DNA of 64,000 nucleotides from Kalaharituber pfeilii. Taxonomy: Eukaryota; Ascomycota; Pezizomycetes; Pezizales; Pezizaceae. Positions 17,056 to 58,925 of the stretch are shown here, one piece after another (position 1 is the first letter of the stretch; every line of letters starts with the position of its first letter). Made by a program: the position numbers and the translations under genes. The notes under the pieces were generated by a model. The model did not search any database. It was not told where the DNA came from and worked only from the letters and a program-made list of their open reading frames with translations. The stretch spans positions 248,001 to 312,000 of the forward strand of contig WHUZ01000036.1 in assembly GCA_015179045.1 (NCBI GenBank). Direction: 5' to 3'.

Positions 17056-17111
17056 ACGTGATACGTAGTGGCAGTTCCGACCCGAGGGCACGAGATGAGC
17101 TGCAATGATTG

Positions 17112-17142
<31 letters not shown>

Positions 17143-17614
17143 ATAACCCCGCTTGCAGCGCCAAGCCATGGCAGGGTCCCTGGGCAAGCCCTCGAAGCCC
17201 GGAGACAGGCTTAACAAAGAAATTTCTATCTACTTCTAGAACCTGAGGCTCCACTACTGTACCAAAAAGTGTGGTGTTATTACTTCGGTATGCATCGTAG
17301 CTTAACGGAACTACCACCTTACATTAGTGAATTTCAAATTCAAAAATTGCCAGCTATAAATAAAGCCGACTTGGCGTACATACACTTTTTCCAAATTTAT
17401 CCGGTATTGTCTGCATTACATACTGTGCAGTTTGTAAAATATGCCCAAATCTTATAGTGCTAGCACAACCATAGCCATTTCGTAATGTGCTTTGTACTAA
17501 ATTGAATATTATCATTATTACATATGGTATTCATACACTTTGCTGTGCAATCTCTATAGACAAGTATCCAGAATTATAATAGCACATAAGAATAAGAACG
17601 GAACTCTATAGTAC

Positions 17615-19090: not shown

Positions 19091-19573
19091 ATATGTGTCT
19101 GGAGGTGGACAGCAAAGGTCTGCATCTAGACACCACATTTTAACTCCAGCTTCCGGGTATTGAGAGCAGCAATGCGGTACCCAGGCATAGCAGTCAGCGG
19201 GCTGCGCACCCCGGGTGGCAAGTCTGCGTCAGAGGCGCTAGTGGCGTCTGACGCACAGGACGCAAAAATTTTCCGTTCCTGATGTAGCCGATTCCTGGTG
19301 TTAACTTCCATTTTTGGTAATATACATTCCGCAGGCCTATAGACTACCATATCGATCTACAGGGCTTTCATACCCGCTTATAAGGCCTTTCCAATGCCTC
19401 TTTCTTTCAGCACTTCTCCTCAACAAACCTTCTTCACAAGAAGTGTTCTATATAAAAGATTCATAAGAAATGAGCAGTTGGCCTTTATATTACTCATCCC
19501 TTTATACTTTTTTATAAATTAAACTAACAACAAGTCATGATACTCATTTAGGGTTCCTTGACTGTCGCATATC

Positions 19574-19879
19574 ACCGACCCGGGTCGGGAAAAATTCGCA
19601 GGTTGCGAATTTGCCGTCGGGGAAGTTTGCTTGCCGGGATGCGAAAGTGTGGGGAAGAGGGGAGGGGGGAGAGGGGGGGATATATAGTGGGGCCTCCCTG
19701 AGGCAGAAACAGGAAGGTCCGTCCGGAGGTTTCTGGAATCAGGTGGTAGAAGTAGATAGAAAGTTTTTTGTTTGTTAAGCCTGTCTCCGGGCTTCGAGGG
19801 CTTGCCCAGGGACCCTGCCATGGCTTGGCGCTGTAAGCGGGGTTATGTGATTTTAAAAAAAAAAAAAAAAAAAAAAAAA
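19574..19879 (+). mobile_element. tail-2 LINE, 3' UTR fragment
   Basis: Matches the 3' UTR of the 17-28 kb LINE (GCGAAAGTGTGGGGAAGAGG ..., AGTAGATAGAAAG ...), then tail-2 (19812-19850) in the GGCTTGGCGCTG variant and poly(A). It is flanked by the perfect 14-bp duplication GACTGTCGCATATC (19560-19573 and 19880-19893). Confidence 0.92.
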
Positions 19880-22797: not shown

Positions 22798-22800
22798 TAT

Positions 22801-23520: not shown

Positions 23521-23588
23521 TTAGCATGATAACCTTATCACAACCAGATCAAAACTGTAGCAATAACACCACACTTTTTGGTACAGTA

Positions 23589-24925
23589 TATATCTCCCCC
23601 TCTCCCCCCTCCCCTCTTCTCCACACTTTCGCATTCCGGCAAGCAAACTTCCCCGACGGCAAATTTCGCAGTTTCCTCCACACCTTCGCAACCTGCGAAT
23701 TTTTCCCGACCCGGGTCGGTAAATCGCGCGGCGCCCTAAAAACCCTCCCCACCTTCGCAACCCGGAACGAAAATTATCGCACGGCGCGCTCCTAAAACTT
23801 GATCCCGGAAAAGAACCTTTCCAACTCATCCCATTCCTCCCCATTCTCTGCCGTCCTTTTCCAGTTCTTCTCCACATCCCCCATTCTCTGAAGCCTTCTG
23901 GGCGAAACCTCTGCTGACTGCACTGGAAGGCTAGGTGCACCCCCGTCTGGGCCTCCCCGCAGCTGCACTTCTCCGATTCCGCCGCTCCCATCCTCTTCAA
24001 CCACACCCTGCATCTTCCTCTCTCCAGTCGTAATGCTGTGAAGTTGGACACCGCTGTCCTATTCCACTCCATTACTTTCCCCCTCCCGAAACCTTCCACC
24101 TCCCTCCTCTCCTTCCTCCACGCCTTAATCCTCTGGCGCACCCCGCTCCCGGTGGCCACCTCTTTCCCTTCCACCGCCGTCCCCTTCTTTGCCCACTCAT
24201 CCGATATGAGCCTTGACCCACATCAGTTTCGCGTCCCCTCCCTTCTTCTTCTTCCTCGCCACGGCATCCACCACTCTCCTCACATCCTCGGTTTTTCCCT
24301 TTCCCTCCCTGCCTGCCTTCTGGATCGCCATGATGGCAGCCTCAGAGTCTAAACAGATCAGTACAGGGACCTCCTCCTCCGCACTCTCCAGCGCCTTTCT
24401 CACTCCCCTCACCTCCCATCGAACACCGTCGCCGTTCTCCCCACCACCTCCGCCGCCGCTGCCGACCTCCCCCACACTCCTGCTCCCACCTTGCTGTCCT
24501 CGATCTTGCTGCCGTCGGAGAAAAGGACTGCCCTTTTTCGTCCGGCTTCCCCGATCGCGGCTTCCCACTCCCCCCTCGTCTCCACTTCTCCTTTCCGCCT
24601 CTCCACCACTTCCACCTGCCCCTTCTCACACTCCCCACCCCACGAGATCTCCTCCCCCTCTTCTGAGAACCTAGACCACTGGCTCTGCCAGCGGTCCAAA
24701 ACCGCCTCATACCCGTCTTCTTTCCCCAGTGCCCACTGCACCCCCCAGTCTTTCCAGTCCCTCGCTTCCTCTTCCCTCTCCTCATTCCCCGGCCTGAAGT
24801 CCGTCGTGCATAGCTCCGCTAGTTCCGACGGTGCTTCCACTTCCCGGACAATCGCCCTCGCCTGCGCCCCGTCCAGGACTGCCTCCACGTCCTCCACTCC
24901 ACACACCGTACCCACCCCTCCTACC
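23589..24925 (-). pseudogene. tail-2 LINE ORF2: RNase H and zinc finger
   Basis: Several minus-strand frames together encode the end of a LINE polymerase. VLFSDGSKIEDSKVGAGVW (about 24,475-24,530) gives the first RNase H Asp, VLICLDSEAAIMAI (about 24,330-24,360) the third, and LMWVKAHIG (about 24,200-24,225) the last block; further on the CSCGEAQTGVHLAFQC finger (about 23,925-23,975). Frameshifts separate the pieces and the coding strand is purine-rich (GAG, GAA, GGG). It is a second LINE family, distinct from the tail-1 family by sequence of every block. Confidence 0.82.
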
Positions 24926-25148
24926 CCCGCTCCTCCGAGCGTTTGGAAGGGACTCCGCAACCACAACGCCCCTCACAGCGAAACCTACACAGATCGAAAG
25001 TTCTCAGCCCGCTGAGTCTTTTGATCTAATTTTTATTCCAAAATATCGAAGTCCTCAAGTTTCCCCCTTGGGGTGAAGTCTTGAGGAATCTTTCAGCTCC
25101 CGCTCCGTTGCCAGCACACCTCAGCCCCTGTCTTCTTGGCACTCCACC

Positions 25149-26522
25149 ATGGATCGAACCAATAGATTCATGGCACTGGGCAGTCCAGCACCGAAAAACA
25201 CAAATACAGGTGCCAAAACAGTGCCTGCCAAGAGCACCCGTCTCGAGGCCCTGATGCACAAGTCTATCGGCGAACGGCTCGGCGGAGTCAATATGTCCGA
25301 CATGCTTGATGCAATAGGAGACGTCATACAACACATAGATTCTTGTATAGAAGACCAAATGAAAAGACCAAACTTCGAGCCAACAGACAGGTTCCTTTAC
25401 CGGATTCGCCGGGTGCATGTGTGTCTTAACCGTGTTGCAGTAAGGGTGGGAGGTTTTGATTGCACGACATTTCACAGGAACATCATGGCAAAAAATTTTG
25501 TGAAGGAAGGAGAAACACAGACTGATCCGGAGATACCACCAAAGCTAGCTTATGCAGCAGTCATCTCCCAAAACATTCCGCCAAGCACACTCCCGAAAGG
25601 GAACAAATCGGACCCACCTTCAGCGCCGCCACCAGAAAGCCGAACAAAGTCCACCGCTTCCCGATCCAAAAAAGCAAAAAGGGGGCAGAGTACCAGTCCC
25701 CCCAAGCAGGAAACGTCCAAAAAACCATCTCCAATACCATCTCTGAAGCCAATCCCAAAGGAAAGGACACTCCCGCAATCCGGCCGTGCCATTGTAGCGC
25801 ATGGAATTGCGGTGACAAAGAAACTCGGGAAAGTAAGAGATTGGATGGAGACTGCTGTAACGGGATATTGTATAGCGAGCCGGGTAAATAGCTTCACGCT
25901 AAAAGATGACCTCTGACAAGCATTTCAGGATGATAGCTTCACGCTAAAAGATGACCTCTGACAAGCATTTCAGGATGTCGGTACAATGTATATGGGTAAA
26001 AGGGATGTGACCTGAGTACGTATTGCAGTCTCGAAAGTGTATATAAGTGGTGTTCATGGCTGTGTGTTCTCCTTTCCTTTTTCTCTTTACACAACCTCTT
26101 GTATTTAGTTTCTACTAAGTAGAGTGGTTACCTGCTGTGCCGATCCGCTGAACTGCTGTACCGCTGTGAACCGTTGAACCCGCGAACTGCTGAACTGCCG
26201 CTTGCCGCCTCCTGCCTGCGCTCCGTAGATTGCCGTCATCCACGGGCCCCAGACCACGTCCGCCGTTACAACTGCGAACCCCTGGATGGGAAAGATTGTT
26301 GCAGCAAGATGGTTGGTAAAGAAAGAGAGGAGGGAGGGAAAGAAGGCTAGCTCGGTTGTCATCTACCTGGAGGGGGAGGTGGAATCGGATAGCCAAACAC
26401 CAGCGAAAGTAAGGTTGTCAGGCAAGTAGTACGATTCGTGCCTATATGACTGGGACAGAAATTCAAAGGTGGACAGAAAGGGGAAGAGGAGGGACGTGGA
26501 GGAAATGGACTTGACGACGTAA
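25149..26522 (+). pseudogene. half-LINE A ORF1, interrupted by an LTR
   Basis: Starts MDRTNRFMALGSPAPKN at 25149 and follows the intact copy (6338-7288) through the helical segment, the basic linker and GRAIVAHGIAVTKKLGKVRD. It is broken at 25,856 by the LTR and resumes at 26,271 with PWMGKIVAARWLVKKER..., SSVVIYLEGEVES and DWDRNSKVDRKGK to the stop near 26,522. One in-frame stop (WQ.YDS region: AGTAG near 26,427) also occurs in the second part. Without the LTR the 5' part would be collinear with the intact copy. Confidence 0.88.
25856..26270. repeat. solo LTR
   Basis: 415 bp, TGTAACGGGATATTG...CCGCCGTTACA, with inverted ends and a perfect 5-bp duplication ACTGC (25851-25855 and 26271-26275). 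It contains a 45-bp tandem duplication beginning TAGCTTCACGCTAAAAGATG (about 25,889-25,978). No internal coding region, so it is the product of LTR-LTR recombination. Confidence 0.92.
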
Positions 26523-26733
26523 TCTTTCATTTTTGGAGGAGCGGGTTGTCTCATTGGTTTTATTTCCTCTATTCCCTTTTGAATGTCGGTGTATATAGTG
26601 AGTTGTTTGTTTTTTAGGTGCCTGTCTCCGGGCCATAAGGACTTCGGTCCAGGGACCCTGCCATGGCGAACAGCTGCAAGCGGGGTTATGTGAGATAAAA
26701 CCCGCTCCTCTCCCTCCTCCAGCCGCCTTCTTC

Positions 26734-26793
26734 TTTTTTTTTTTTTTTTTTTTTTTCACGTGACCCCACTTGTAGCTGTTCGCCATGGCAGGG
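26734..26793 (-). mobile_element. tail-2-only insertion
   Basis: 23 T, then the inverted tail-2 variant with CCCCACTTGTAGC. It is flanked by the perfect 14-bp duplication CAGCCGCCTTCTTC (26720-26733 and 26794-26807). It lies in the LINE ORF2. Confidence 0.92.
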
Positions 26794-26794
26794 C

Positions 26795-27129
26795 AGCCGC
26801 CTTCTTCAACACCTGCAGCTGGACTCTCTCCATCTCCTTCCTCCATTCCTTCTGTCCCCTCCACCCGATCTCGCTTCCCCACATTGCAACCGCCCTCACC
26901 ATCCCCGTGTAGGCTTGCCTCCAGCTGCGTGGAGACATCCCCCAGTTCCGGTTGCCCAGTCCCGAGAGAGCCCCTGCCAGCCTCCGCGCTCGGGTCAGCC
27001 TGTTTCGCCAATGTGCGCCAAAGGTCAAGCTCTCATCGAAGATGACCCCTAACCACTTTAGCATCTCCCCCTCTTTCTTCCACCTCCTCCCCACCCCTTC
27101 TCTCCGATTTTGCCTATGCAGTTTATCAG
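26795..27129 (-). pseudogene. tail-2 LINE ORF2: RT thumb
   Basis: Encodes MLKWLGVIFDESLTFGAHW, LTRARRLAGALSGLGNRNWG and MVRAVAMWGSEIGWRGQKEW, the segment that follows the palm in LINE RTs. The catalytic FADD region expected just upstream is absent: GKIGEK of the fingers is followed almost at once by KKEGEMLKWLG, so an internal deletion removed the palm. Confidence 0.8.
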
Positions 27130-27452
27130 TAGTGAGCGGCACGAGCCGAGCCAGCTCGAGCTCGACTGATCTTGAGCTCGAGCCGGCTCGAGCTCAAACG
27201 AGCCAAGATCATGCTTGTGTTTTTCTTGACAGCTCGCTAAAATGCTTAGCCAGTGCAAGGTTTCATAAACTGTAAATACCTAATATAGTAATAATTAGAG
27301 ACTTGGAGCTCATTCTGACCTACCAACAACTTCGAAATGCACAATTTAGCTGATAGTAGTGAGAAAGATGAAAATTTAGCTTTGTTTAGTTTAGTTTGTC
27401 AATATTATGTATATAATCAATCCAGGCTCGAGCTAGCTCGTGCCGCTCACTA
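27130..27452. mobile_element. hAT-type MITE with TAGTGAGCGGC ends
   Basis: 323 bp. Ends TAGTGAGCGGCACGAGC and GCTCGTGCCGCTCACTA, flanked by the perfect 8-bp duplication TTTATCAG (27122-27129 and 27453-27460). TAGNG ends with 8-bp duplications are typical hAT features. AGCTCGAG-rich subterminal repeats, no ORF. Confidence 0.93.
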
Positions 27453-27460
27453 TTTATCAG

Positions 27461-28474
27461 GTTGATCGGTCTCCAGGCCTTCGTTGTTCTAATATCTTTG
27501 CCTGGTTTTGGTATCATAACAACCTTCATTTCCTTCCACTCCTTGGGTATCTGGTTCTGCATCCACTTCTCTGCTACCTCGTTCACCAGCTGGTCTCCGA
27601 ATGGTGTCTTCAATGCCGCTTTGATGAGGCGATATCCAATTCCATCTGGACCTGGCGCTGATGTGTTTTTTGTGCTTCTTAGGGCCGCTCTCACCTCCTC
27701 CTCTACTCTTTTTCTTTCCTCCACGCTCCTCTATTGTCTGTCTCTATCCTCTCTCCCTCCCACTACCTCTCCGCTCTCCTGAGTCTCCTCCTCTTCCTCT
27801 TTGAAGGCGAAGTTTCTCTTCACCAGAGCTTCCGCCTTTTCTATATCCCCTTCCAGCTCCCTCCCCTCTTCATCCATGAGAGTCCCCATCTTTTCTCCTC
27901 TCCCAAAGGGGTTCTTCGCCACCCTCACTAACCTCCATGGATCACTGACTCCCTCCTCTTCTACGAACTCTCTCCAACACCTTCTTCTCTCCTCCCGGAT
28001 CTTCCACTTCATTTTCTGTACCGCTGCCTTCCAACCCCTCACTCTTTCCTCATTTGCCAGTCTCGCACGAGCGCTCACCCCTCCTCTTGCAAGCCTGTTT
28101 ACCTCCTTTCTCAGCTCCTCAACCTCCTCACTCCACCACTTCTTGCTTTTTCCGCTCACTCTGACCTTCTTCTCAAGTGATCTCTTCCACCTCTTGAGTT
28201 TTTGGTATGCATCCCCCTCACCCATTCTCTCCACCCGCTCTTTTCTCTCCTGCTCTCCCCACTCTCCATTCAACCCCTCAATCTCTTTCTCCATCCGCTC
28301 CCAGTCTATACGTACCCTCACCTCTTCTTCCTCTCCCTCTCTTTTCTTCTCCTCGAACTCCGCTACCAGTGCTGAATGGTCCGAGCGTAAATCTAGATAC
28401 TCCACCTCTACTCCTCTCACCCCTCGGTACCAAACCAGATCAATCCTCAATTCTTTCAGTCGCCCTTCTACCTA
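27461..28474 (-). pseudogene. tail-2 LINE ORF2: endonuclease end, linker and RT fingers
   Basis: Begins (5'-truncated) with RIDLVWYRGVRGVEVEYLDL followed by RSDHSALVAEF, the C-terminal SDH motif of an APE-type endonuclease. Then a highly charged linker (about 27,780-28,350) with KKWWSEEVEELRKEVN and WKIREERRRCWREFVEE, then SAPGPDGIGYRLIKAAL and MKVVMIPKPGKDIRTTKAWR with PINLIN of the RT fingers, running to the hAT MITE. A frameshift lies near 27,725-27,731. Confidence 0.85.
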
Positions 28475-29012
28475 TGAGCTGCAATGAGCTGAATTTGATA
28501 GGTATGGCAGATCTGACCTGCCGGCGGGAGATGAGGTAGAATGAGATTAATTTGACAGGTATAGCAGGTATGGCCCAACGGCGTGAGATGGGGTGAAGTT
28601 GACAGGTATGGCCGGCCTGACCCGAGGCACTCAGTAGCCATTTTAGCAGCCATTTCGGCAGCCATTTCAATAGTCGTTTTGGTAGTCATTTCCATAGCCA
28701 TTTCATTATCCCTTTTTGTAGGCATTTTAGTAGCCATTTCAGCAGCAAATTCAGCAGCAATTTCAGTAGCCATTGAAGTAACTATTGCAGTGGCCATTTC
28801 AGCTGTTATTTCATCAGCTATTTCGGTAGCCGTTTCAGTAACCCTTTCAGTAGCCATTTCAGCGGCCGTTCCGTTGCGGCAGCCATTTCAGCAGCCAATT
28901 CATACTCCATTTTGGTAGCCATTTCATCATCCATTTTGGTAGCCGACAGCCGACGTCGGGTCTTGGCATTTTGACCGAATTGGGACGAAAAACACTGGGC
29001 AGCTTGTAATCA
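28475..29012 (+). repeat. composite satellite block, copy 1 (right part) and connector
   Basis: 57-bp monomers to about 28,620, 12-bp GCCATTTCNGNA repeats to about 28,935, then a connector (GACGTCGGGTCTTGGCATTT ... AACACTGGGCAGCTTG) that abuts the head of copy 2. A related connector lies at 60,115-60,205. Confidence 0.8.
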
Positions 29013-29150: not shown

Positions 29151-30798
29151 AAGTATGGGAGGTCTCTCTCGCCAGCGTTGAATTTGATAGATATGACAGG
29201 TCCGGCCTGACAGCATGAGCTGTGGCAGAATGAGTTGAAGTTAATAGACATGGCAGGTCTGGCCTCACAGCCTCAGGTGAGGAAGAATGATCTCAATTTT
29301 ACAGGTATAGCAGGCCCCACCTACCGCCGTGAGATCAGGTAGAGTGAGGTGAATTTCCCAACCCGACGGCGTGAGAAAGTTGACAGGTACTGTGGTTCAC
29401 CACTTCCCCGGACACCCCACTTTCCCGGACACCCCACTTTCCCGGACACATTTACCACCAGAACTGCGCAGCTTTCGCACTCAATATCTCAACAACCACA
29501 ACAGCATTTGTGAATGCACTTTGTGTAGCTATTAGACACAGTGTAATTCTTGCTATCTAGCACTTTTTCTTCATCAAAAATTGTGGGTGCAAAGGGATTA
29601 TGGCTTGTCGCATTTTTGTTGGAAGGCTTGGCATTTATTTGTATGGGATCTCCATACAAATGTCACCACCCCCGAATTCTGCATGCTACACCTGCAATCA
29701 ATTCATGAAAAAAACTCAGACACTCACATTCAATAGCATCACTCAGTCGGAAACTATGAACAACGTAGTTAGGTAATAACTGTAGTGGTTGTGAAATTAT
29801 TCACAATATTCATATTTCCCATAGAAACCATTTGTATGAGAACGCCCAAAAGTAGATAGTTGTACACCAACTCTACAATTCAACAAATGAAAGTAAACTA
29901 AATGCAGCACCTTACTATACCTCTTCAGGTGATTCTTGACATATACTATCATAGCTATTGTGATTAGCGTTGAAGAGTAGGACTACATTCGAGTCTGATG
30001 AACATTTTGTATGGAGATCCCATACAAATAAATGCCAAGCCTTCCAACGTAAATGCGACAAGTCATAATCCCTTTGCACCCCCAATTTTTGATGAAGAAA
30101 AGGTGCTAGATAGCAAGAATTACACTTTATCTAATAGCTACACAAAGTGCATTCACAAATGCTGTTGTGGTTGTTGAGATATTGAGTGCAAAAGTTGCGC
30201 AGTTTTGGTGGTAAATGTGTCCGAGAAAGTGGGGTGTCCGGGAAAGTGGTGAACCACAGTATGGCCGGCCCATGAGATGAGGCAGAATAAGCTGAGTTTA
30301 GCATGTATAGCCGGCCTGATCTGACAGCACAAGATCAGGCACAATGGGCTGAATATGACAGGTATGGCGGGCACAACTTGCCGGCACGAGATGCGGCGAA
30401 ATGAGCTGAATTTGACAGGTTTGGCAGGCCCTATTCGACGGCGTGAGATGAGCCAGAATGAGCTGAATTTCACACGAATTGCAGGCCCTATTCAACGGCG
30501 TGAGTTGAGCCAGAACGAGCTGAATTTCAAACGAATTGCAGGCGCTATTCAACGGCGTGAGGTAAGCCAGAACAAGCCGAATCTCACACGAATTGCAGGC
30601 CCGGGCTGTCGGCACGAGATGATGCAGATTGAGCTAAATTTGACACATATATCTGGCCCATTCCAACGGTGCAAGATGTGGTAGAATGAGCTGAATTTGA
30701 CACATATGGCCCACCGCAACTGACGGTGCGAGATGCAGTAGAATGAGCTGAATTTGACAGGTATGGCCGGCCCGAGCCTACGGTGCAAAGTAGAGATG
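29151..30798 (+). repeat. composite satellite block, copy 2: 57-bp array
   Basis: About 12 degenerate monomers split by a foldback element (29390-30259). At 30,430-30,600 three monomers are very alike (CAATTCAACGGCGTGAG type), suggesting local amplification. Confidence 0.85.
29390..30259. mobile_element. TA-flanked foldback element (870 bp)
   Basis: Ends CTGTGGTTCACCACTT... and the complement, next to TA on both sides (29388-29389, 30260-30261). The satellite GACAGG-TA-TGGCCGG is restored when it is removed. The inverted repeats are about 250 bp long each (CCCGGACACCCCACTTTCCC ..., TTTGTATGGGATCTCCATAC ...). No ORF. A second copy is at 61316-62170. Confidence 0.92.
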
Positions 30799-32050
30799 TT
30801 TTCCCCCGAGGGGGGAATTCTTGAGGATCCCTCAGCTCACCACCACCGTTGCCACCCCACCGTCGAGGCGCCAAGAGCCAATAGACAACCGCGGATAAGG
30901 CTAGACATCCAATAGAAAATGCCACCGAAGGGCAAAAAGACACAGACGGTACCCCCCCACCGCCCACCCCAGCGGCGGTCACCACTCCGCCCCCAACGCG
31001 GCGCAATACTTGGGGGGAACTGAGGAAACACGGCATCGGCTGGTACGAGGTAGTCGAACAGATGTGGAAGGAAAAAGTCAAAGACACGACGTCCCCGGGG
31101 AAAGGAGCGACCCTGATAATACGGTTCCTAGGGGACGGCGACATCGACGCGGAGGAGATCCTCGGCCTTCAACCCGGCCAGATTCCCCAGGGCTCCAAGT
31201 CGCACCACCGCCACAGACACTGGGGCTCAGCCCCATCCAGAACATAGACACCGAGCCGACACCACCAACGCCACCACAGCCACTGGGGCTCAGCCCCATC
31301 ACGAACGTGGACACCAAGCCGACACCGCCACAGCCACAGACACTGGGGCTCAGCCCCGGCGTTCAAATAGCCAGCACCAACGCCATCACAGCCGCTGGGG
31401 ATGAGCCCAATCAGCCACATACACATAGCCCCGGCGAAGGCTCCTACCACCCCAAGGTGGGAGCAAATAAAACCCCGACACACGCAACAAGGAAGAGGAA
31501 GGCAAGACCCGCCTCCCCGACCACGAAAACCACTCCCGAGGCCACTCCCGCAGCCGCCAAACCCACCCTCAACCCCCGTCCCGAAACCAGGTCCCCGACC
31601 CCCCGAAGATCAGACAGCCCCCTGGAGAAAAAAGGCATAGTCGTCCATGGAATCGCCCTGAGGAAAGACTTGGGGAATGTCCGGAGATGGCTAGAGACAG
31701 ATAACATAGGCATGGGCAGGATCACCGGGATTCGATGGCTGAGGAAAAAGTCAATCCTGTTGGAAGAGGGAAAAAAGACAAGTTCCGTGGTGGTATACCT
31801 GGAGACACCTACGGAGACCGGGAAAGTCTGGCTCGGAGGAAGATGGTTAAACACAAGTGTTTACGAGACAGACAGGGGAAGGAAGTAGACAGGTTTTTTC
31901 GGGGTTCCCGGCTACCCGCACCACGAAGGACAAGCGGGAAATACATGTATTTAGTGTTTAGTTAGTCCTTTTCTTTCTTTAAATATACACCTCGCCATAG
32001 CCCACAGGACGGCATGCGAGTAATGAAATTAAAAAAAAAAAAAAAAAAAA
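30799..32050 (+). mobile_element. half-LINE family B, ends in tail-1
   Basis: 1.25 kb: partial 5' UTR starting at a TTTTCCCCCGAGGGGGG hairpin, one ORF region, 3' UTR, tail-1 hairpin (31991-32020) and poly(A). It is flanked by GTAGAGATG (30790-30798 and 32051-32059). There is no ORF2. Its protein is homologous to that of family A, but its 3' tail is that of the other LINE. Confidence 0.9.
30919..31888 (+). pseudogene. half-LINE B ORF1 (frameshifted)
   Basis: Starts MPPKGKKTQTV at 30919 and passes through three frames: the first ends at 31,023; the second carries RNTWGELRKHGIGWYEVVEQ and KGATLIIRFLGDGDIDAEEI to 31,247; the third (open 31,010-31,888) holds a repeated LGLSPIxNxDTxPTPP motif (three times), a basic Pro/Thr-rich linker and the RRM-like end: KGIVVHGIALRKDLGNVRRW, ITGIRWLRKKS, SSVVVYLETPTETGKVWLG, SVYETDRGRK. 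The N-terminal domain differs from that of family A. Again it stops right after the RRM. Confidence 0.82.
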
Positions 32051-38376: not shown

Positions 38377-38694
38377 CTATTTGCTCTCACCATCTAGAAA
38401 AGTGTCAAGTCTTAAAAGTTCTTGGGGAGCATTAAATACACAAGCATCGACTATAGCTAGAATATGCAACTCTGACTGTTTCTCTAAAACAACCTCACGG
38501 TTCCTCTTCTTGACTTCCTCCTCCTTCCGTTTTGCTGCATCTTTTTCCTCGATGGAGGCAACTCCTAGCTTGACAACTACACTTGCAAGACTCTCTTCCA
38601 ACCTTCTGAGCCTTTGATTGATTGCACTTGTTTCTCTTGCCTTCTGGTTTTCCCACACACCTCTACAACCTCCTCGGGCCACGTCCAAGATCAC
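38377..38694 (-). CDS. coiled-coil protein fragment in the pogo-like element
   Basis: 105 codons. Residues about 25-75 are a charged coiled coil (INQRLRRLEESLASVVVKLG, KDAAKRKEEEVKKRNREVVL), followed by AIVDACVFNAPQELLRLDTF. It may be the C-terminal end of the transposon's own protein, whose upstream part was cut off by the LINE insertion. I do not recognise it as a specific family. The first residues lie in LINE 5' UTR if the LINE starts at 38,637. Confidence 0.45.
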   Translation of the reverse strand: MILDVARGGCRGVWENQKARETSAINQRLRRLEESLASVVVKLGVASIEEKDAAKRKEEEVKKRNREVVLEKQSELHILAIVDACVFNAPQELLRLDTFLDGESK

Positions 38695-39095
38695 GTGACC
38701 GAGCCCGTATCTCGACCCACAGGACAGCTAGCGACAAGCGGACAACGACAGACGACGCCCCTCGGCCCGAAGGTCGCGGGGACCTCTAAATATCTACCAA
38801 AAACGAACATTTAGACACCTTCCCCAAAGAAACAGCCATCAACGCTCTGGGAACGCCCCCCAGAACCTCCACCAACCCCCCAACCCACCTTCAGCTCGTA
38901 CAGTCGCCTCGACGGCGGGGGCACCCCGAGACCCCATCAGCAGCCTCCCCACCACTACGAAAATACGCAACCCAGATAAGGACAGTATTTGCCACCCACT
39001 ATTCGCCACTCACATCCACTAGCTACACACACCCCTTGCCACCCAAACGCCACCCAACATACTAAGACCAATAGCGTACAACCCACCAGCCACCG

Positions 39096-42000
39096 ATGGC
39101 TCCAACCACGAAAGCCACAAGAGGCCGAACCAACAGCCGGGCCGACCCTCTTCGGCAAGCCAAAAGCGCCACACGGACGGCAAAGCGCCGCCCAAGGGTA
39201 AATAACATAGAGTTTTATATGGTGAAGGACTGGAAGGCGCATGAAGACATGACATTTATCGCCGAAGACCAGCAATGGACCCTTCATAAGTTTGCTGACA
39301 TTATCCAACACACCAGAAAGGGAGAACCGGAAAAGGCAGAAAGAATGGAAAATGCAACCACCCTAGCGGTGGGGCGAGGCGTATTCGCAGACGAGGAGGA
39401 CATTGAGGTCCCTGTTAGGACAATAACTATCGACGACATACAGGCAGGCAGGGTTCTGACCCAGCAAATAATTGAGTTCATCGAAAGAAGCAAGGCCATG
39501 GACTCCCGCCCACCCGAAGACCAGATGGAGGAGACAATTGTAGTAAAGCCACCCGCCCCTAATACCTACGACAAGATGGAAGAAATGATCATGGTGAGAC
39601 CACCAGAATTAAGAACTACGATTCCGGCGACATATGACAATGAGTCAGAGGTCCCGGATTCACAGGAGGAACCTGCATCCACAAGCAAGACCACGTCCCT
39701 CCCCCTATACAAGGACCCAGACTTTAGTGACAATGAAGGGTACACCCCGGTGCCTCACGCCGGAGCACACATGCTCATTAAAGATGATGACACACAAAGC
39801 GAGTCATCAGACGACACAGTAATATATATACCGGCAACTCCCAGCACTCGGCCACCAACTCCGGACAGACCCCGAACCCCGGACATGGATGAGAGTGCCT
39901 ATGAGGAGCAATTCATGCTGGATACAGCAATAGCCGCAGCGAGGCAGGCACGATCCTGGGAAACCAAGATGACTCAGGGCCGTATGAAACAAGAGACTGC
40001 CAGATATATGGGAGCTTCAGCAGCAGAAGCCCTACGGGGACTAGAGAAACGATTCGGACTGGGCAGGTGGGAAAGAGAAGTGGATAATGACCTTAAAAGA
40101 TGGACGAGGGATATGGCTGATAAATACTGGGCCTGGAGGAGCGAGCAAGCAGCAGGAACGGATAGCATCCATACTGACATAAGCCGGGAACTAGAAGAGG
40201 CACAACAAGACCTAAAACAGCACACGAGAGTGTGCTTAGAAACACACCACGAGGGCATTCGCCACTTCATGCTCAACCAGATGGCAGTCGAAAGAAAGAA
40301 AATCAAGGATGAAATACTATACGAGATATTCAACCGAGACACCCTCAGAGAGCGGGACGACAGTTGGGTGAGGATTATCCTAGACGCCTTACAATACCAC
40401 AGCAATATCTTGGATGACCTAAGAAGAAGACTCGGGGTAGTCACGCCAGGCAGAATCGAAATGGAACCAGAACTCACACTGACACATACAACAAACTGGA
40501 ATGACCTTACCTCAGGAGCAAACACGCCCGAATTGACAGCAACGGCCACACCCTTGGAGACAAAGACGCCTACATTAATTGACCTCAGCACGCCTAGCGC
40601 ATCACCCATGCCAAATAACAAACTAACTACTGAAGAAGGAGGGGACCAAATGGACAGAACTTATACAAACGTGAAACTTGAGGATAGCAGGCACGCGGTC
40701 AGGCTCAAGACAATACCATCGCCCCTCACAGGAATGATACGAAGGCCGGTAGGAAAGAGAAGCTCCTCGGTACCTGCCCAGAAGACTACAGAAGAAGGAG
40801 GAGATAGTATGGATTATGACCTCACCAATACGAACCTCAAAGACAGCAAGCACGCAATCGAAATTGACAGAGACATAGCCATGCGAGACAACACAGACAT
40901 GTCGAGCACCATACACATGTCCAACAGCATACCAACAAACTCAAGCCCGGCGCAAGAACCATTGATAAAGTCTACAACTACAGTACAGCTTCCTAAGAAA
41001 TCACGAGGTGGATCCAAGCCCCAAGGAGATGGACGAAAGGGAGCAGCTACCAATAGAACAGCTAGAAATAATACTAACAAAACAGCCACCAGTGAGGGTG
41101 CTCCTACCACTGAGAAACTGGACAATAAGAAGGGGGCCGAGACGAGAGGCACAAGTAGTACTCCCAACATACCGACACATAAAGGAGAGAAAAGCAAGGA
41201 GAGGACACCAGAGAATGAGACAAAACCCTCCAAATCCACTGAGAAAAGGAAATCATATGCTACGGCAGTAAAAGAAGCCAAACTCATAAGAGAAGACAAA
41301 CCCCAAGCAGGAACCCCAACTCAGAGACAAGAGGAAAAGCGGACACTACTCAAGGGGCCAGCACAGAAGGGTGAGGAAGAAGTAATACCCAAGGAGAAAC
41401 TGTGGCAGGCGAGAGTCTTTGGGGCGCAAAACTGGCAGAGTATTAGTGAGGATCCAAGATCACACTCAGTGTTCGAGCACAAAAAGGCCATGAGAGACAG
41501 GATCAATCGAAACCTAGGAACGGAAGCAGAGTACCAAGTGAGATTCGTTGCCCTGGACCCAGAATACCCCCACGAAAGAATCTTAATCATGGCAGATACT
41601 CAGTATAAGAAAGGACTTAGGTCTCTAGGCCCCCTAGAGAAAGCAACATGCAATGGACACCAACATCTAAAAGTCGACTGGGATCACAGAATGGTTGAGC
41701 TAGTAACTTTTAACATAGGAACCAATGAGGCTCCGAGCAGTGTGGAGAGAGAATTGAGAGCTGACAATCCAGGAGTATTGGCCAATAGATCAGTACGCAG
41801 ATTAACTAACAAACAGGTCCCAACACAAGGAAACAAGGCACTATCCATTTTTGTGACTGATGGAGTAGTCGAGACCCTAAAATCAGGCTTACTCTTCAGA
41901 GGTGATAGAATAAAGCTATACCTAAGACAGGATCTAGGAAAGGAGACCTCGAATAAAGCCAGAAGATATAGATACACTGCTCCAGATGGATACTGCCGAC

Positions 42001-42245
42001 ATTTCGTAGTGGGACAGGTAATCGAGTGGCTCCCCAGACAACGCAACCTTCCAGAACATCTGAAGAGCTCACCAGCAAGGCGAGACTACGAAGACCCAGT
42101 CGACCTCAATGAAACTCCATTTGCAAAGTCATGCCAGGCTTGTCGAAAGAAAGGCGGACACGAGGAAGGGTGTGAACGAGCGAGAGCAGCACAGGAGAAA
42201 GCGACCCCATATAGGGCACCAGGGTATCGACAAATAAGACTATGA
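39096..42245 (+). CDS. LINE ORF1 protein (nucleic-acid-binding, gag-like)
   Basis: 1049 residues, intact. N-terminus basic (MAPTTKATRGRTNSR), then acidic, Pro/Thr-rich stretches (about 130-270), a helical region (about 270-450: AAEALRGLEKRFGLGRWERE, YWAWRSEQAAG, HFMLNQMAVERKK), and a long disordered Ser/Thr/Lys-rich part (about 470-760). Near 865-955 an RRM-like domain (MVELVTFNIGTNEAPSSVER, SVRRLTNKQVP, KALSIFVTDG, LLFRGDRIKLYL) is followed at about 1012-1025 by a single zinc knuckle CQACRKKGGHEEGC. In Tad-like LINEs ORF1 packages the RNA. The stop overlaps the ORF2 start (ATGA), pointing to termination-reinitiation. It is unusually long for an ORF1. Confidence 0.9.
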   Translation: MAPTTKATRGRTNSRADPLRQAKSATRTAKRRPRVNNIEFYMVKDWKAHEDMTFIAEDQQWTLHKFADIIQHTRKGEPEKAERMENATTLAVGRGVFADEEDIEVPVRTITIDDIQAGRVLTQQIIEFIERSKAMDSRPPEDQMEETIVVKPPAPNTYDKMEEMIMVRPPELRTTIPATYDNESEVPDSQEEPASTSKTTSLPLYKDPDFSDNEGYTPVPHAGAHMLIKDDDTQSESSDDTVIYIPATPSTRPPTPDRPRTPDMDESAYEEQFMLDTAIAAARQARSWETKMTQGRMKQETARYMGASAAEALRGLEKRFGLGRWEREVDNDLKRWTRDMADKYWAWRSEQAAGTDSIHTDISRELEEAQQDLKQHTRVCLETHHEGIRHFMLNQMAVERKKIKDEILYEIFNRDTLRERDDSWVRIILDALQYHSNILDDLRRRLGVVTPGRIEMEPELTLTHTTNWNDLTSGANTPELTATATPLETKTPTLIDLSTPSASPMPNNKLTTEEGGDQMDRTYTNVKLEDSRHAVRLKTIPSPLTGMIRRPVGKRSSSVPAQKTTEEGGDSMDYDLTNTNLKDSKHAIEIDRDIAMRDNTDMSSTIHMSNSIPTNSSPAQEPLIKSTTTVQLPKKSRGGSKPQGDGRKGAATNRTARNNTNKTATSEGAPTTEKLDNKKGAETRGTSSTPNIPTHKGEKSKERTPENETKPSKSTEKRKSYATAVKEAKLIREDKPQAGTPTQRQEEKRTLLKGPAQKGEEEVIPKEKLWQARVFGAQNWQSISEDPRSHSVFEHKKAMRDRINRNLGTEAEYQVRFVALDPEYPHERILIMADTQYKKGLRSLGPLEKATCNGHQHLKVDWDHRMVELVTFNIGTNEAPSSVERELRADNPGVLANRSVRRLTNKQVPTQGNKALSIFVTDGVVETLKSGLLFRGDRIKLYLRQDLGKETSNKARRYRYTAPDGYCRHFVVGQVIEWLPRQRNLPEHLKSSPARRDYEDPVDLNETPFAKSCQACRKKGGHEEGCERARAAQEKATPYRAPGYRQIRL

Positions 42246-45200
42246 TTAAGGTCGCATACCAGAACGTTGGCAGGTCAATACTGGGGACGGACCTAGCCCT
42301 ACAGGAAGCAGCAGACAAGAAAATAGATATACTTTTTATAGGGGAATGCTGGAGAGCACCAAGGGAGGAACTACATTTCATCCAAGCTATATGAACGTAC
42401 ATTCTCCTATAAAAAGCGGAGCAATAACAGCCTACGTAAGGAAGGACAGAATAATGAGCATGAAAATAGACGGCAAAGCCAACCACATCACAGTACAATT
42501 AGACGACCGAATGATTACTGGAGTGTACTGGAACAGAGACACCGATATTGAGAAGGAATTGGAAGAGATAGGAGTAACGGATATGATAATAGGGGACTGC
42601 AACAGCCATCACTATGACTGGTCTCCGAAACAAGATACTAGAGGCATACTACTAAAAGACACCCTCCAAGCACGAGGACTACTCCAACAGATAGATAGAA
42701 ATACTATCACATGGACACGGACAATCAATGGACAGATAAGAACGGCACTCTTGGACCTGGTATTCGCAAGACCCAGGGAATGGAAAACAACAAAGACAAC
42801 ATGGATTTCTGGTACAGACCATGTGATGATTATCGGAACATTGGATACCAGAAAGAAGACAGAGGCCAAAACCATTAAAGTAACAGACTGGGACAAATGG
42901 GAAGAATTTGTTGATAAATATGGCAACAGAAAACTAGCCGAAGGTATTGATGGGTATGAACTACTATGTGAATTAAGCCAAAAGTTTACAAAAGATGCAT
43001 ACATCACCAGACGCACGAAACGATGGTTCGACAAGGAGGTAAAAGAGGCACGTCAAATGACCAGAACCATTCTAAAGAGCGGGGCTAGCCACACAGAGAA
43101 AACAAGAGCGAGAAGACTACTTAGGGAGATAATAAGAGATAAGAAGAAGGAATACTGGGAAGGCTTCTTAGAAGAGGACAGAATCACCTCACCATGGAAT
43201 ATTTTCAGGCTAGCAAGAGACCCTTTCCGCCAAAGAGACCTCATGGGGATACCAGGCTCAGACGAGGAGATAGCTAAGGTATTGATTGAGCGCAACTTCA
43301 TATCACAAGGACAAGAAACTACGACCACTACTATCAGACCAACAGGACTCACCGTTGAAAAAGATCAAGCCAGGATGATGATAGAAAAGGCACTAACAAA
43401 AGCTAAACCAAGATCAGCACCGGGACCCGATGGCATACAATATGGCTTACTGAAGCTTCTGAAGGGTACGACTCTATGGACTGCTGTAAGAGAGAGAATT
43501 GTAGAATATATAAACGGTGACTACGATTTTGCCAGAGGCTTTGAGGTGGTTATGATACTCAAGAAAGGGAAACCCAGAGATCAGGTAGGGAGTTGGAGAC
43601 CCATAACGCTTCTGAACACAGTAGCGAAGCTAGGTCAAAAAGTCATCGCAGACCTGCTACAAAGAAAAGACGACCTTTTCAGAGACACTCAGCTTGGAGG
43701 AAGACGCCATCGAGGTGCAGAGGATCTACAGCGACAAGTGCTGAAGGAGACAGAGAAGAGGCTACAGAAGAAAGAATGGGTAGCCCTAGTGGGAGACGAT
43801 ATCAAGTCAGCTTTTAACTTTCTTCGAAGGGACAAGGTGGTTGCTCGAATAAGACAAACAGACCATAACCTAGCGAGCTTTGTAGAAGCTTTTATGATGC
43901 CGACCAACTACAACATGACATGGGATGGCAAAAGGAGAGCTACAGGGAGGATGACAGATGGTACACCGCAAGGATCTCCACTATCCCCGGTACTATTCCT
44001 GATCGGTGTAGCACCTGTGGCAGAGAAGGTAGACCAACACAACTTCACCAGGTCATATGTCGATGATTTCCACAGTGTAATCTCACATCCGTCACTCCTA
44101 AAACTCCGACAAGCCATAAAGATACACAGGGCAAAAATCACCGAAACAGCAGCAGAGCATGGATTCGAAATTGACCCAAACAAGTCCGAGACACTAATAA
44201 TTGGGGTAAAAGGCCCTGACTATAGGCTAACCGGATTGACGGTAGATTGGGAGCTAAAATTTACTCGACATCATAAGAAGAGACTACTTCTCGGGAAGGC
44301 AGCATGGGGAGTGGCATCGAGACTAACTCGCCTCACACCAGCCAAGAAACGACAGATATATACAAGCATCGCACGCACAATCGCCACATGGGGATGCTGG
44401 GCATGGCAGGACTACTCAAGACAGTCTCCACCAGCAACCAAGATCAAAGACATAGAAAAATGGCAATACACAGTAGCACAGAAGATTACTGCAGCCCCGT
44501 GGGGTACCAGGCGAGACGTAGTCGAAGGAATAGCCAACCTAGAATCAGCCCAAACATTCCTAGAAGGAGAACGCCAGAGGGTAGAAGCCAGGGCCCTACG
44601 GTTCCACGATGAGATAATCCAAAACAGGGATAATGAGTGCAGGTACCTACGGGGGTCTCTCTCACACAACAACCCCCTACCACTAGCCATCCTACCAGCA
44701 CTACCTGCAGACGCAGACAAGCTCGAGTTCGAGAATGCCATAGCCAATGCCGAGGACGAGGGGTGGAACTCCGTCTACACTGACGGGAGCAGGATAGATT
44801 ACAAGACAGGCCTAGGCACCTACGCAAAAGACACCTCTACTTCCACATACCTAGGGGAACAGACTACTGTCAATGATGCAGAACTCATTGCCATGAGCGA
44901 AGCATTACGCAATCAAGCTGGGGAACTCCTGATCATAACCGACTCTAAGGTATCGATATCCAAGCTCCTAAAGATCGCCCAGGGAGAGCCCACCCACAAA
45001 GGACCGGCAAAACTGGTTAGAGACGCCTGGAAAGCGAGAACAGACCGAGGTGACTGGGACGTTGCAGTGATGTGGGTCAAGTCCCATATAGGAGTCAAAG
45101 GGAACACCGAGGCAGATACAGCTGCGAAAATAGGCACATGCCTCCCCTACCAAGATGAAACCATAACAGAAGATGGGATACGACAAACCTCGAGACATCA

Positions 45201-45510
45201 GCGCGCCACAGAGAGAAACCGGCTAGGGCTCAGCTACCGTCCCTTGACAAGACTTGGAAGTCGACACATAGCCACACTAGCAGGAATACTGGGCGGCAAG
45301 TTACTACGGAAATGGCAGTACGAAATCGGGAAAGCAGACAGCCCAGAATGTCGATGGTGTGGGGAGGAGGAGGAGACTACTGAACATGTGCTCACTAGGT
45401 GCAGGACATGGAAACGAAAGTGGCCAGGAGGCATGCAAGACTTGGTCACTCCTCCGAAGAGCAAGGACACAGACCCACTTAGAGACATCTTGGAGTGGGC
45501 AGGGGCATAG
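42242..45510 (+). CDS. LINE ORF2: endonuclease, reverse transcriptase, RNase H (one frameshift)
   Basis: True start is probably ATG 42242, overlapping the ORF1 stop. That frame encodes the endonuclease start (MIKVAYQNVGRSIL, IDILFIGECWRAP) and is lost near 42,365-42,390; the long frame (open from 42,346) takes over at TTFHPSYMNVHSP, so one single-base indel lies there. Then endonuclease blocks DMIIGDCNSHHYDW and SGTDHVMIIG; RT (about 43,410-44,300) with SAPGPDGIQYG, GDDIKSAF, GTPQGSPLSPVLF and YVDD (about 44,055); RNase H with YTDGS (about 44,776), NDAELIAMSEA, TDSK, VKSHIGVKGNTEAD; finger CRWCGEEEETTEHVLTRC (about 45,350-45,400). All catalytic residues visible. Apart from the indel the copy looks young. 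Confidence 0.93.
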
Positions 45511-45579
45511 GAGACACGCAGGATCTTTTCTTATTCCTTTTCTTCTACCTTCATATGTATCTAATCTTATGTAACTAAT

Positions 45580-45609
45580 CTCGCCATAGCCCCCAGGGCG
45601 GCACGCGAG
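45580..45609 (+). promoter_or_regulatory. tail-1 RNA hairpin (LINE 3'-end recognition signal)
   Basis: CTCGC-CATA-GCCC-CCA-GGGC-GGCAC-GCGAG: outer 5-bp stem, inner 4-bp stem, then AGTAATGATAT and poly(A). The other 18 copies lie at 1852, 3916(-), 4128, 7744, 14407, 20751(-), 31991, 32958(-), 34756, 35929, 36401(-, shortened), 37044(-), 46485(-), 48421(-, partial), 57586(-, partial), 62242(-), 63557(-), 63716(-). Known LINEs and SINEs use such 3' stem-loops to recruit reverse transcriptase; here that role is inferred. Confidence 0.8.
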
Positions 45610-45699
45610 TAATGATATAAAAAAAAAAAAAAAAATGTTTCTCTAAAAGCCTATCAATTCACACAAAAAAATCAAACTCTACAAGCATGGCTCCAGTCT

Positions 45700-57585: not shown

Positions 57586-58925
57586 GGGGCTATGGCGAGG
57601 TTTTATGTAGAGACACGAAAACAAAAGTAACTAAGTACATGTATTGCCCGCGTTGCTCATGCATGGTGCGGGTTGATGAGAAGAAAAGGTTCAAGTCCGT
57701 CCCCTGTCTCATTCATACTCGCACGACTTTAACCATTTCCCTCCCAGTCTCACTCTGCCCAGTGTTGGTTCGATCCGTTCCTCGAGGTACACTACCACCG
57801 AGCTGGTGAGCTTCCCCTCGTCTACAAGAATCTCCTTTTTCCTCAACCACCGGATCCCAGTTATTTTTCCCAGGTCTTTGTTGGCGGATTCCAGCCATCT
57901 TTGGACGTTCCCTAAATTCTTCCTTAGGGCTACACCGTGGACCACTATTCCGTTCCTTGAGGTGTTGGTGGCGGGGGTGGGCTTGGCTGGTTTTGGGGGA
58001 GGGGATCCTGCACTCTTTTCTCGTCGCTTCTTTTGCCCTGGATATGGGGGGGCGGAAGTGGGCTCGGGGGGGGGGTTTTGACGACTGGGGCGGCAGGGCT
58101 GTCTTGGATGACCGCAGGTGCTGTGGCGATTTTCCTTGCCTCTTTGTCGTCGAGTTGTCGCTTGAGGGCGTACGGGTCGGTGACGGACGCCGCTTTGCCC
58201 TTCCGTTTCCTGATAATTGCGGGCCCTGGGGTGGGCGCCGGCGTTCCGGGGGTCTGCTCCGTAGATAGCTCTTCCGAGCAGGTAGTGATGGAGCTGAATC
58301 CCAACTCTTCCGAGGTGGGCTGCACCGGAGGTGTGTCAATGCTGTTGATGGGGCTGAATCCGAGTGTTTCGCGGGGAGGGGAGGGAGCCGCAAGCCAGCT
58401 CGGAAAAGGTCTTTCCGGTCCGCCCCCGAAGGTGAGTAGGTCGTCGTCTTCCCATCGTATGGCGAGTGTAGACCCTGGGGTTGGGTAGGTTTTGTTTGCC
58501 TCATGTCTCCACAGAGACAGAGCAATCTGTGGAAAAAAGAAGTCTGTGTTTTCCTTGAGTAAGGGCTCCATCACGTCCCAGCCTGGTATCCTGGACATCC
58601 ATGGTGGGGGAGAAGGGGGCTGCAGGTCGGTCCTCTGTCTGTTCTTTCCTCTCGGCGGCATTGATTGGTGGGGGGTTGGTGTTTCGCGTCTTCCTATTGG
58701 GTCTTGGCACGGGGTTGATGTGTAGGCAACGAGGGTGATGAGCTGAAAATTCCTCGAAACTTCACCCTCGGGGGGAATTTGCAGTGTCAGGTATTTGGAA
58801 ATAAAAATTAGATCAAAAGACTCAGCTCACTGAGAGCTTTCGATCTATGTGGTTTTCGCTGGGGGGACGTTGTGGTTGTGGAGTCGCTTCCAAACGCTCG
58901 TCCTGAGGTGGTTGGCTCGGCGTAG
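57586..58925 (-). mobile_element. half-LINE family B, second copy (3' end lost)
   Basis: On the minus strand: 5' UTR with the same start as family A (AGGACGAGCGTTTGGAAGCG, about 58,900; TCGAAAGCTCTCAGTGAGCT; GATCTAATTTTTATTTCC), one ORF, and CCTCGCCATAGCCCC, the beginning of the tail-1 hairpin, where it breaks off at 57,586 without poly(A). This copy proves that families A and B share their 5' UTR. Confidence 0.85.
57709..58661 (-). pseudogene. half-LINE B ORF1 (one frameshift)
   Basis: MPPRGKNRQRTDLQ at 58,661, an N-terminal domain with LWRHEANKTYPTPGSTLAIR, repeated LGFSPI / LGFSSI motifs, a basic KRKGKAASVTDPY segment and a Pro-rich linker to 57,945. There a single-base shift moves the frame into the RRM-like end: MVHGVALRKNLGNVQRWLES, ITGIRWLRKKEI, SSVVVYLEERIEPTLGRVRL, KWLKSCEYE. 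The equivalent protein at 30,919-31,888 has other frameshifts, so the ancestral ORF was open throughout. Confidence 0.82.

What the first reader, a model, noticed from the sequence alone, without database searches (positions are those of the whole stretch)
30799..32050. Tail exchange: related half-LINE families A and B use the 3' ends of two different LINEs
Families A and B share ~180 bp of 5' UTR (compare 7350-7527 complement with 58,740-58,925 complement) and a homologous RRM end (VVHGIA.xK.LG.VR.W, SSVV.YLE). Yet A ends in tail-2 (as in the LINE at 17-28 kb) and B in tail-1 (as in the LINE at 38-45 kb). SINEs are known to borrow LINE tails; a coding parasite that swapped its replicase-recognition module between two LINE lineages would be new.
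Basis: partly seen in the sequence, partly recalled or inferred. Interest (0 to 1): 0.9.

Follow-up and report, generated by a model that had tools for sequence, protein, structure and literature searches.

The report
Half-LINE families with swapped 3' tails
In a desert-truffle genome, two related families of "half" jumping genes, which make an RNA-binding protein but no copying enzyme, share the same front part yet end in the 3' signal hairpins of two different complete jumping genes, so one of them has probably changed which element it parasitises.

Summary
The genome is Kalaharituber pfeilii. Family A (window 6160-7527) and family B (30798-32049; 57587-58914) are bounded multi-copy elements with poly(A) and mostly 8-15 bp target-site duplications. 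They share a 5' UTR (82% over 206 bp) and an RRM under purifying selection (43-58% amino-acid identity); no RT was seen in them. Of 84 RRM places, 38 A lead to tail-2, 33 B to tail-1, 12 have no tail nearby, and one B leads to tail-2 (a LINE insertion). Tail-1 is the 3' hairpin of LINE T1 (38.6-45.6 kb). Tail-2 is that of LINE T2 (17.1-28.5 kb, split by a TA-flanked insertion).

In a split analysis of 15 A and 19 B elements, the A-B 5' UTR distance fits that predicted from the RRM (0.20 against 0.23). The tail does not (0.43 against 0.12). T1 and T2 LINEs are more diverged from each other than A is from B. Tail replacement is the best reading. Its direction is unresolved, and 5' exchange is not excluded: on ML distances the 5' UTR looks slightly too similar.

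Both hairpins also occur alone, as roughly 38-nt insertions with exact TSDs, so the presumed recognition module is itself mobile.

The parts
6160..7527 (-). Half-LINE family A, full-length copy: 5' UTR 7289-7527, intact 316-aa ORF 6338-7288 with C-terminal RRM, 3' UTR, tail-2, poly(A); TSD GGCCTGAATGGCCT
   Evidence: (ORF), (>=30 near-full copies, mostly 95-97%; TSD)
6175..6262 (-). Tail-2 of family A, ~88 bp 3' module ending in the core CCCTGCCATGGCGAACAGCTGCAAGCGGGGTTATGTGA
24936..26700 (+). Second family A copy, broken, inserted in the T2 LINE; interrupted about 25856-26272
30798..32049 (+). Half-LINE family B copy (B1, the finding): 5'-truncated, frameshifted ORF from 30919, RRM 31628-31885, 3' UTR, tail-1, poly(A); TSD AGTAGAGATG
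31991..32030 (+). Tail-1 core hairpin of B1
57587..58914 (-). Half-LINE family B copy (B2): full shared 5' UTR 58662-58914, ORF from 58661 (frame interrupted), RRM 57697-57957, incomplete tail-1
38653..45640 (+). LINE T1: ORF1 39096-42245, ORF2 42346-45510 (endonuclease, RT, RNase H), tail-1 about 45579-45620 (5' end approximate)
23583..28500 (-). LINE T2 body (broken; 5' limit not determined), 3' UTR interrupted at 23583
17107..17254 (-). LINE T2 3' end with tail-2, separated from its body by a TA-flanked insertion with inverted ends (17255-23582)
19560..19879 (+). 5'-truncated LINE T2 3' end with tail-2 and poly(A); >=40 copies genome-wide

Best explanation
A and B are sister families of coding, non-autonomous retrotransposons (half-LINEs). 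Each transcript is inferred to carry a shared 5' UTR, one ORF for a C-terminal RRM protein, and a 3' hairpin followed by poly(A). They lack RT and endonuclease, so a LINE must copy them in trans. The 3' hairpin is inferred to be what the LINE enzyme recognises: tail-1 by T1 LINEs, tail-2 by T2 LINEs. After A and B split, one of them (which one is not known) had its 3' hairpin replaced by that of the other LINE lineage and so changed its helper, keeping its 5' UTR and RRM. Shown: the element boundaries, the RRM under selection, the tail-1 hairpin with compensatory changes, and the conflict between tail and the rest. Inferred: recognition by the cognate RT, translation, and the swap event.
For: At DNA level only the tail of A or B matches a LINE: A to T2 119 columns at 79%, B to T1 56-59 bp at 90-91%. 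Tail-core edit distance (39 nt): A-T2L 0.22, B-T1L 0.14, T1L-T1L 0.14, but A-B 0.43 and T1L-T2L 0.46; shuffled A-B 0.58 (12 LINE ends of 14 examined). Regressed on RRM distance within families, the A-B 5' UTR is as predicted (0.204 against 0.228) while the A-B tail core is not (0.431 against 0.120, z 6.3; largest within-family value 0.23) (pairs are not independent, so z is descriptive). A and B are each one side of a branch in the 5' UTR tree (99/96) and the RRM tree (100/100). T1-clade LINEs with only 46-72% ORF2 identity keep similar tails (0.08-0.21), whereas T1 and T2 share 33-47% over aligned ORF2 stretches and have tails 0.54-0.67 apart, ungapped. In one T1-type LINE the ORF1 end is 43% identical where ORF2 is 49-63%, so an RRM at 43-58% points to a split younger than T1-T2. 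Loci fetched without the tail in the query: 19 of 19 A (L041-L059) have tail-2 and 10 of 10 B (L061-L070) have tail-1. Tail-1 hairpin: 28 compensatory cells, shuffled maximum 14. RRM dN/dS 0.05-0.31 in the 11 of 21 pairs with defined dS. TSDs of 8-15 bp on 34 of 39 elements (no shuffled control run there).
Against: On ML distances the 5' UTR/RRM ratio is 0.18 for A-B (5-95% 0.13-0.26) against 0.31 (0.18-0.67) within families, so the 5' UTR may have been exchanged or homogenised as well; in the 5' UTR tree A branches, weakly (66/82), beside some B rows. T2 LINEs with 86-95% identical ORF2 ends can differ by 0.21 in tail core, so tail-2 can change fast. Tail-1 and tail-2 themselves look distantly homologous (25/33 gapped identity, shuffle P 0.0035), so some difference could be divergence rather than replacement. 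Tail-2 pairs show no two-sided changes. No A with tail-1 and no junction intermediate was found in 84 RRM places; the one B with tail-2 (L008) is a LINE insertion, and an apparent chimera (L056) is an A element nested in a tail-1 insertion.
Confidence: 0.6

Rival explanations
1. 5' module exchange: the A ORF with tail-2 and the B ORF with tail-1 are old pairings, and it was the 5' UTR (promoter region) that one family took from the other.
For: The 5' UTR is the most similar module (82% over 206 bp). Its ML A-B distance is low relative to the RRM (ratio 0.18 against 0.31). The protein N-termini are not visibly homologous.
Against: By p-distance the A-B 5' UTR distance is what the RRM predicts. 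Within A, too, the 5' UTR stays at about 90% while ORF pieces fall to 71-79%, so it evolves slowly anyway. It does not explain why the RRM is closer (43-58%) than T1 and T2 LINEs are to each other.
Confidence: 0.22
2. Co-divergence: A and B each descended with their own LINE lineage since the T1-T2 split; no module moved and the 5' UTR is under extreme constraint.
For: In 71 of 72 RRM places with a tail nearby, RRM type and tail type go together (the exception is a nested LINE); the tails of T1 and T2 may share an ancestor.
Against: T1 and T2 ORF2 share 24-34% over aligned stretches and their ORF1s give hhalign E 0.09 and 0.14 against the A/B profile, while the A and B RRMs share 43-58%. The tail core is otherwise slow in T1 LINEs and B.
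Confidence: 0.12
3. A and B are unrelated LINE-ORF1 derivatives that look alike through convergence or short shared motifs.
For: The RRM is a common LINE ORF1 domain (general knowledge, recalled).
Against: 206 bp of non-coding 5' UTR at 82% and an RRM at about 50% identity.
Confidence: 0.02

Closest known systems
HAL1 (half-L1) of mammals
   Same: Non-autonomous LINE derivative that encodes only an ORF1 protein and must be copied by a LINE in trans (passages of PMC5753468; the HAL1 paper it cites is not held).
   Different: HAL1s are L1 derivatives and arose several times from it (same passage). A and B match their presumed helper LINEs at DNA level only in the tail, and the two sister families use two different LINEs.
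SINEs with LINE-derived tails and stringent 3' recognition (review PMC3747384, passages)
   Same: A parasite carries the 3' sequence of its helper LINE; a hairpin with compensatory changes just before poly(A) fits the stringent type.
   Different: A and B are coding, with a selected RRM protein and presumably pol II mRNA; they have no obvious small-RNA head (no tRNA scan was run).
Hagfish SINE2 families with UCON3, Meta or Deu domains (PMC7245038, abstract and section 8)
   Same: Related SINEs combine one body with different LINE tails; the author infers recombination.
   Different: Non-coding elements; here the swap is in a protein-coding half-LINE, in a fungus.
LINE 5'/3' UTR replacement in mammalian L1 (passage of PMC5753468)
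   Same: UTR modules of a LINE are replaced by unrelated sequence.
   Different: There an autonomous element keeps its own enzyme; here the replaced module is the presumed recognition signal for another element's enzyme.
Blumeria EKA genes from truncated LINE ORF1 (passages of PMC6022598 citing Amselem 2015)
   Same: 3'-truncated LINE ORF1 genes in a fungus.
   Different: Described there as effector genes; A and B are mobile elements with their own ends and TSDs.

Membership tests
Half-LINE (HAL1-like, ORF1-only retrotransposon) | Multi-copy unit with conserved 5' end, poly(A) and target-site duplications | tested here: met
   34 of 39 elements with TSD >=8 bp (24/25 A, 10/14 B); >=30 near-full A copies
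Half-LINE (HAL1-like, ORF1-only retrotransposon) | Encodes an ORF1-type RNA-binding protein under purifying selection | tested here: met
Half-LINE (HAL1-like, ORF1-only retrotransposon) | No endonuclease or RT in the unit | tested here: met
   Stop, 3' UTR and poly(A) follow the RRM in nearly all the elements (33 of 34 with a clean poly(A) run). By eye, none of 150 listed RVT_1 places lies within 6 kb downstream, on the same strand, of any of 122 listed RRM-search places; both lists are partial
Half-LINE (HAL1-like, ORF1-only retrotransposon) | ORF descends from the ORF1 of a LINE in the same genome | tested here: inconclusive
   hhalign of A1 against T1 and T2 ORF1 gives E 0.09 and 0.14, though both place the domain upstream of the zinc knuckles
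SINE/LINE-type stringent 3' tail sharing | Parasite 3' end homologous to the 3' end of an RT-bearing LINE | tested here: met
SINE/LINE-type stringent 3' tail sharing | Conserved 3' stem-loop supported by compensatory changes | tested here: met
   Tail-1: 28 cells against shuffled maximum 14 and slid maximum 10. Tail-2: 97% paired (slid maximum 64%) but no two-sided changes, so for tail-2 alone inconclusive
SINE/LINE-type stringent 3' tail sharing | The LINE RT requires the tail to start reverse transcription | not testable with these tools
   Needs an in vitro target-primed reverse transcription or cell assay
Classical SINE | Pol III promoter / small-RNA-derived head | not tested
   No tRNA search of the elements was run; A carries an intact ORF instead

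The most novel reading that the evidence does not exclude
The replicase-recognition hairpin is an exchangeable and itself mobile cartridge. It travels alone as a roughly 38-nt element plus poly(A), it sits on two LINE clades, and a protein-coding parasite lineage swapped one version for the other, possibly by taking a free-standing tail unit, and so changed its helper LINE.
Probability: 0.35. Interest if true: 0.82.

Novelty: new variant of a known kind. Interest (0 to 1): 0.62.

Why it matters
Tail shuffling is known in non-coding SINEs. A coding half-LINE that changes helper by replacing its 3' signal would suggest that the signal alone decides which enzyme copies an RNA, and that an ORF1-type protein need not match that enzyme. 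The system has two natural tail types on related bodies in one genome, which makes the question directly testable. The tail-only insertions, if they are true elements, would be very small retrotransposons. My nine answered searches listed no report of either, but they cover only open-licence PMC papers and I read only the passages named.

Tried and rejected
Ribozyme in the 5' UTR: an Rfam search of the whole window at gathering level found nothing, and an E-value search of 57500-59000 gave only two chance-level matches. Direct chimera L056 (A tail-2 followed at once by tail-1): rejected, because the A element is nested in a tail-1 insertion whose TSD flanks the pair. The single B RRM followed by tail-2 (L008): about 260 bp of T2 LINE 3' UTR lies directly before that tail, so it is a LINE inserted in a B copy. 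Ungapped tail distances (z 8) were replaced by edit distances (z 6.3) because an indel inflated them. Outgroup rooting with P0008 (29-37% to both families) does not give the direction. Pfam and PDB sequence searches with the A and B proteins found no convincing relative. The tree tool flagged B_L014a and B_L014b as long rows in the RRM tree; they were kept.

Rows left out of the split analysis: window B1 (5'-truncated) and B2 (tail cut); B loci L015, L037, L039, L040, L061, L064 and partial B copies in L010, L011, L052, L058 and L059 (a module missing, cut or interrupted, or simply not chosen); and 20 of the 34 fetched A loci, mostly near-copies, while the window's own A copy was included. Of 14 LINE ends, two gave no tail.

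Full report
What the sequence is. The window lies on contig C290 of a 78 Mb, 360-contig assembly; C290 is 592,131 bp. The closest proteins in the database are annotated Kalaharituber pfeilii, one of them on a contig of that length. The window is thick with nested retroelements.

The elements. Family A is a unit of about 1.37 kb (window 7527-6160, minus strand): a 5' UTR of about 240 bp, a 316-aa ORF, a 3' UTR and poly(A). A genome search scored 40 of 1555 candidates; at least 30 of the matches were near full length, mostly 95-97% identical. Subfamilies A2 and A3 (L041-L059 except L058) keep the 5' UTR at about 90% and the last ~88 bp at 93-96%, while matched ORF pieces fall to 71-79%. Family B is a more diverse set (window 30798-32049 and 58914-57587). 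A protein search listed 122 matches, mostly B RRMs, and one exact 33-nt B-type 5' UTR motif occurs 85 times. Of 39 full-length elements checked, 34 have target-site duplications of 8-15 bp, 24 of 25 A and 10 of 14 B; no shuffled control was run in that call. The window's A copy has TSD GGCCTGAATGGCCT. B1, the element of the finding, is a 5'-truncated copy with TSD AGTAGAGATG.

The helpers. LINE T1 (38.65-45.64 kb) has ORF1 and an ORF2 with endonuclease, RT and RNase H. LINE T2 runs 28.5-23.58 kb and continues at 17.25-17.107 kb; an insertion with TA flanks and inverted ends separates the pieces, and the two flanks align to the uninterrupted copy at 19.6 kb at 256/267. T1 and T2 ORF2 share 24-34% over aligned stretches. 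A and B match these LINEs at DNA level only in the tail. Profile comparison of the A/B domain with the ORF1 of T1 and of T2 is not significant (E 0.09 and 0.14), although in both cases it aligns ahead of the zinc knuckles (knuckles read by eye). The half-LINE ORF therefore probably comes from a third ORF1 lineage, cut before the knuckles; this is inference.

The tails. Tail-1 is a hairpin CTCGC..GCCC NNN GGGC..GCGAG. Over 69 distinct copies of 97, 94.5% of pair cells are standard and 28 show two-sided changes, against a shuffled maximum of 14 and a slid maximum of 10. Tail-2 has the analogous shape: 97% paired over 30 distinct copies of 81 (slid maximum 64%), with no two-sided changes. The two tails align at 25/33 with gaps (shuffle P 0.0035), so they may be old homologues. 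The tail-1 core occurs 1989 times exactly and A's tail core 399 times; the reversed control gave 0 for both.

The association. In all fetched DNA and the window, 84 RRM places were examined: 38 A with tail-2, 33 B with tail-1, 12 without a tail within 420 bp (5 A, 7 B), and one B followed by tail-2, which is a T2 LINE insertion. Many loci were fetched with queries that included 3' sequence. The 19 A loci fetched by their 5' part (L041-L059, of the places listed) and the 10 B loci fetched by the protein (L061-L070, 10 chosen of 122 matches) were not; they show 19 of 19 and 10 of 10 with the expected tail (in L057 the tail match is cut by the end of the locus). On contigs C1 and C2, where the tail-1 list is complete, the three RRM places each have a tail-1 core 103-111 bp downstream.

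The split test. For 15 A and 19 B elements with all three modules, the distance of each module was regressed on RRM distance within families and extrapolated to A-B pairs. The 5' UTR is predicted at 0.228 and observed at 0.204; the tail core is predicted at 0.120 and observed at 0.431 (z 6.3; largest within-family value 0.23; shuffled 0.575). The pairs are not independent, so z is descriptive only. Maximum-likelihood trees put all A on one side of a branch in both the 5' UTR (99/96) and the RRM (100/100). The tail core groups A with T2 LINEs (0.22) and B with T1 LINEs (0.14, the same as T1 LINEs among themselves). As a yardstick, T1-clade LINEs with 46-72% ORF2 identity have tails 0.08-0.21 apart, and in one T1-type LINE (L012) the ORF1 end is 43% identical where ORF2 stretches are 49-63%. 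An A-B RRM identity near 50% therefore looks like a younger split than T1-T2; the ORF1 yardstick rests on that single LINE.

Against. On ML distances the A-B 5' UTR is somewhat too similar for the RRM (ratio 0.18 against 0.31 within families), so a 5' exchange or homogenisation is possible. Two T2 LINEs with 95% identical ORF2 ends differ by 0.21 in tail core, so tail-2 can turn over quickly. No intermediate was found, and the one candidate (L056) was a nested insertion. The direction of the swap is not resolved.

A mobile module. Many tail cores stand alone. Of 54 tail-2 core sites with poly(A), 13 are flanked by an exact duplication of at least 9 bp whose upstream copy ends within 6 nt of the hairpin (12 of them within 2 nt); 37 of the 54 share upstream sequence with another site, as expected for A copies. 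Of 84 tail-1 core sites, 14 have such a duplication (13 within 4 nt, one at 11 nt), and 47 share upstream sequence. In a first scan with a threshold of 10 bp, 13 of 81 tail-2 and 9 of 73 tail-1 sites had one, against a rate of 0.001 or less in mismatched pairings. In tail-2 the 5' boundary is nearly constant, GCCCTGCC. A pattern for the main stand-alone version has 792 exact matches genome-wide, control 0; how many of these stand alone was not counted. Its core is 35/37 identical to A's tail, closer than the T2 LINE tails tested (30/37 and 32/37). Whether these are true minimal elements or products of RT stopping at the hairpin is not known. Either way hairpin plus poly(A) is found inserted with TSDs, and such units are a possible donor for the swap.

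Comparison. Half-LINEs are known (HAL1; passages of PMC5753468). SINE tails borrowed from LINEs and stringent recognition are known (passages of PMC3747384). Shuffling of LINE tails among SINEs is described in hagfish (PMC7245038, abstract and section 8). What I did not see in nine answered searches (open-licence PMC only; listings, plus the passages named) is a coding half-LINE lineage with tails from two LINE clades. I therefore rate it a new variant of a known kind. That T1 and T2 belong to the Tad1 clade is recalled, not tested.

Noticed in passing
window 5216 (+), 60746 (-), 26792 (-), 13782 (-), 50121 (+); 7743 (+), 46514 (-), 3945 (-): Stand-alone copies of the tail-2 (first five) or tail-1 (last three) hairpin, about 38 nt, plus poly(A), flanked by exact 9-14 bp target-site duplications; 792 exact genome-wide matches for the main tail-2 version, not all checked.
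   Followed up: partly
window 17255-23582: Insertion with inverted ends CTGTACCAAAAAGTGTGGTGTTATT and TA flanks, inside the 3' UTR of LINE T2; Tc1/mariner-like by its ends (recalled), no transposase search made.
   Followed up: partly
P0035 (770 aa, contig of 175,610 bp): Annotated protein with a weak, below-cut-off HET-domain match whose C-terminus is a B-type RRM: probably a half-LINE insertion joined to a host gene model.
   Followed up: no
L016 about 1553-4690 (-): A long T2 LINE copy inserted inside a B half-LINE, splitting its 5' part from its RRM.
   Followed up: partly
L021-L055, 5' ends: Between the TSD and the conserved 5' end of A copies lie some 4-20 nt, part of which differs from copy to copy; start-site heterogeneity or untemplated addition.
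   Followed up: no
window 30271-30773, 35069-35758, 15287-16168, 49059-50107 and elsewhere: Degenerate tandem arrays of about 57 bp (AATGAGCTGAATTTGACAGG..) recurring across the window, some next to element insertions.
   Followed up: no
L007 2389-4630 (-): A third LINE lineage (ORF2 end 50-54% to T2 LINEs) whose tail CCTGCCATAGGCTGGTAGCCTGTATGCGGGGTTACGTGA looks intermediate between tail-1 and tail-2.
   Followed up: partly
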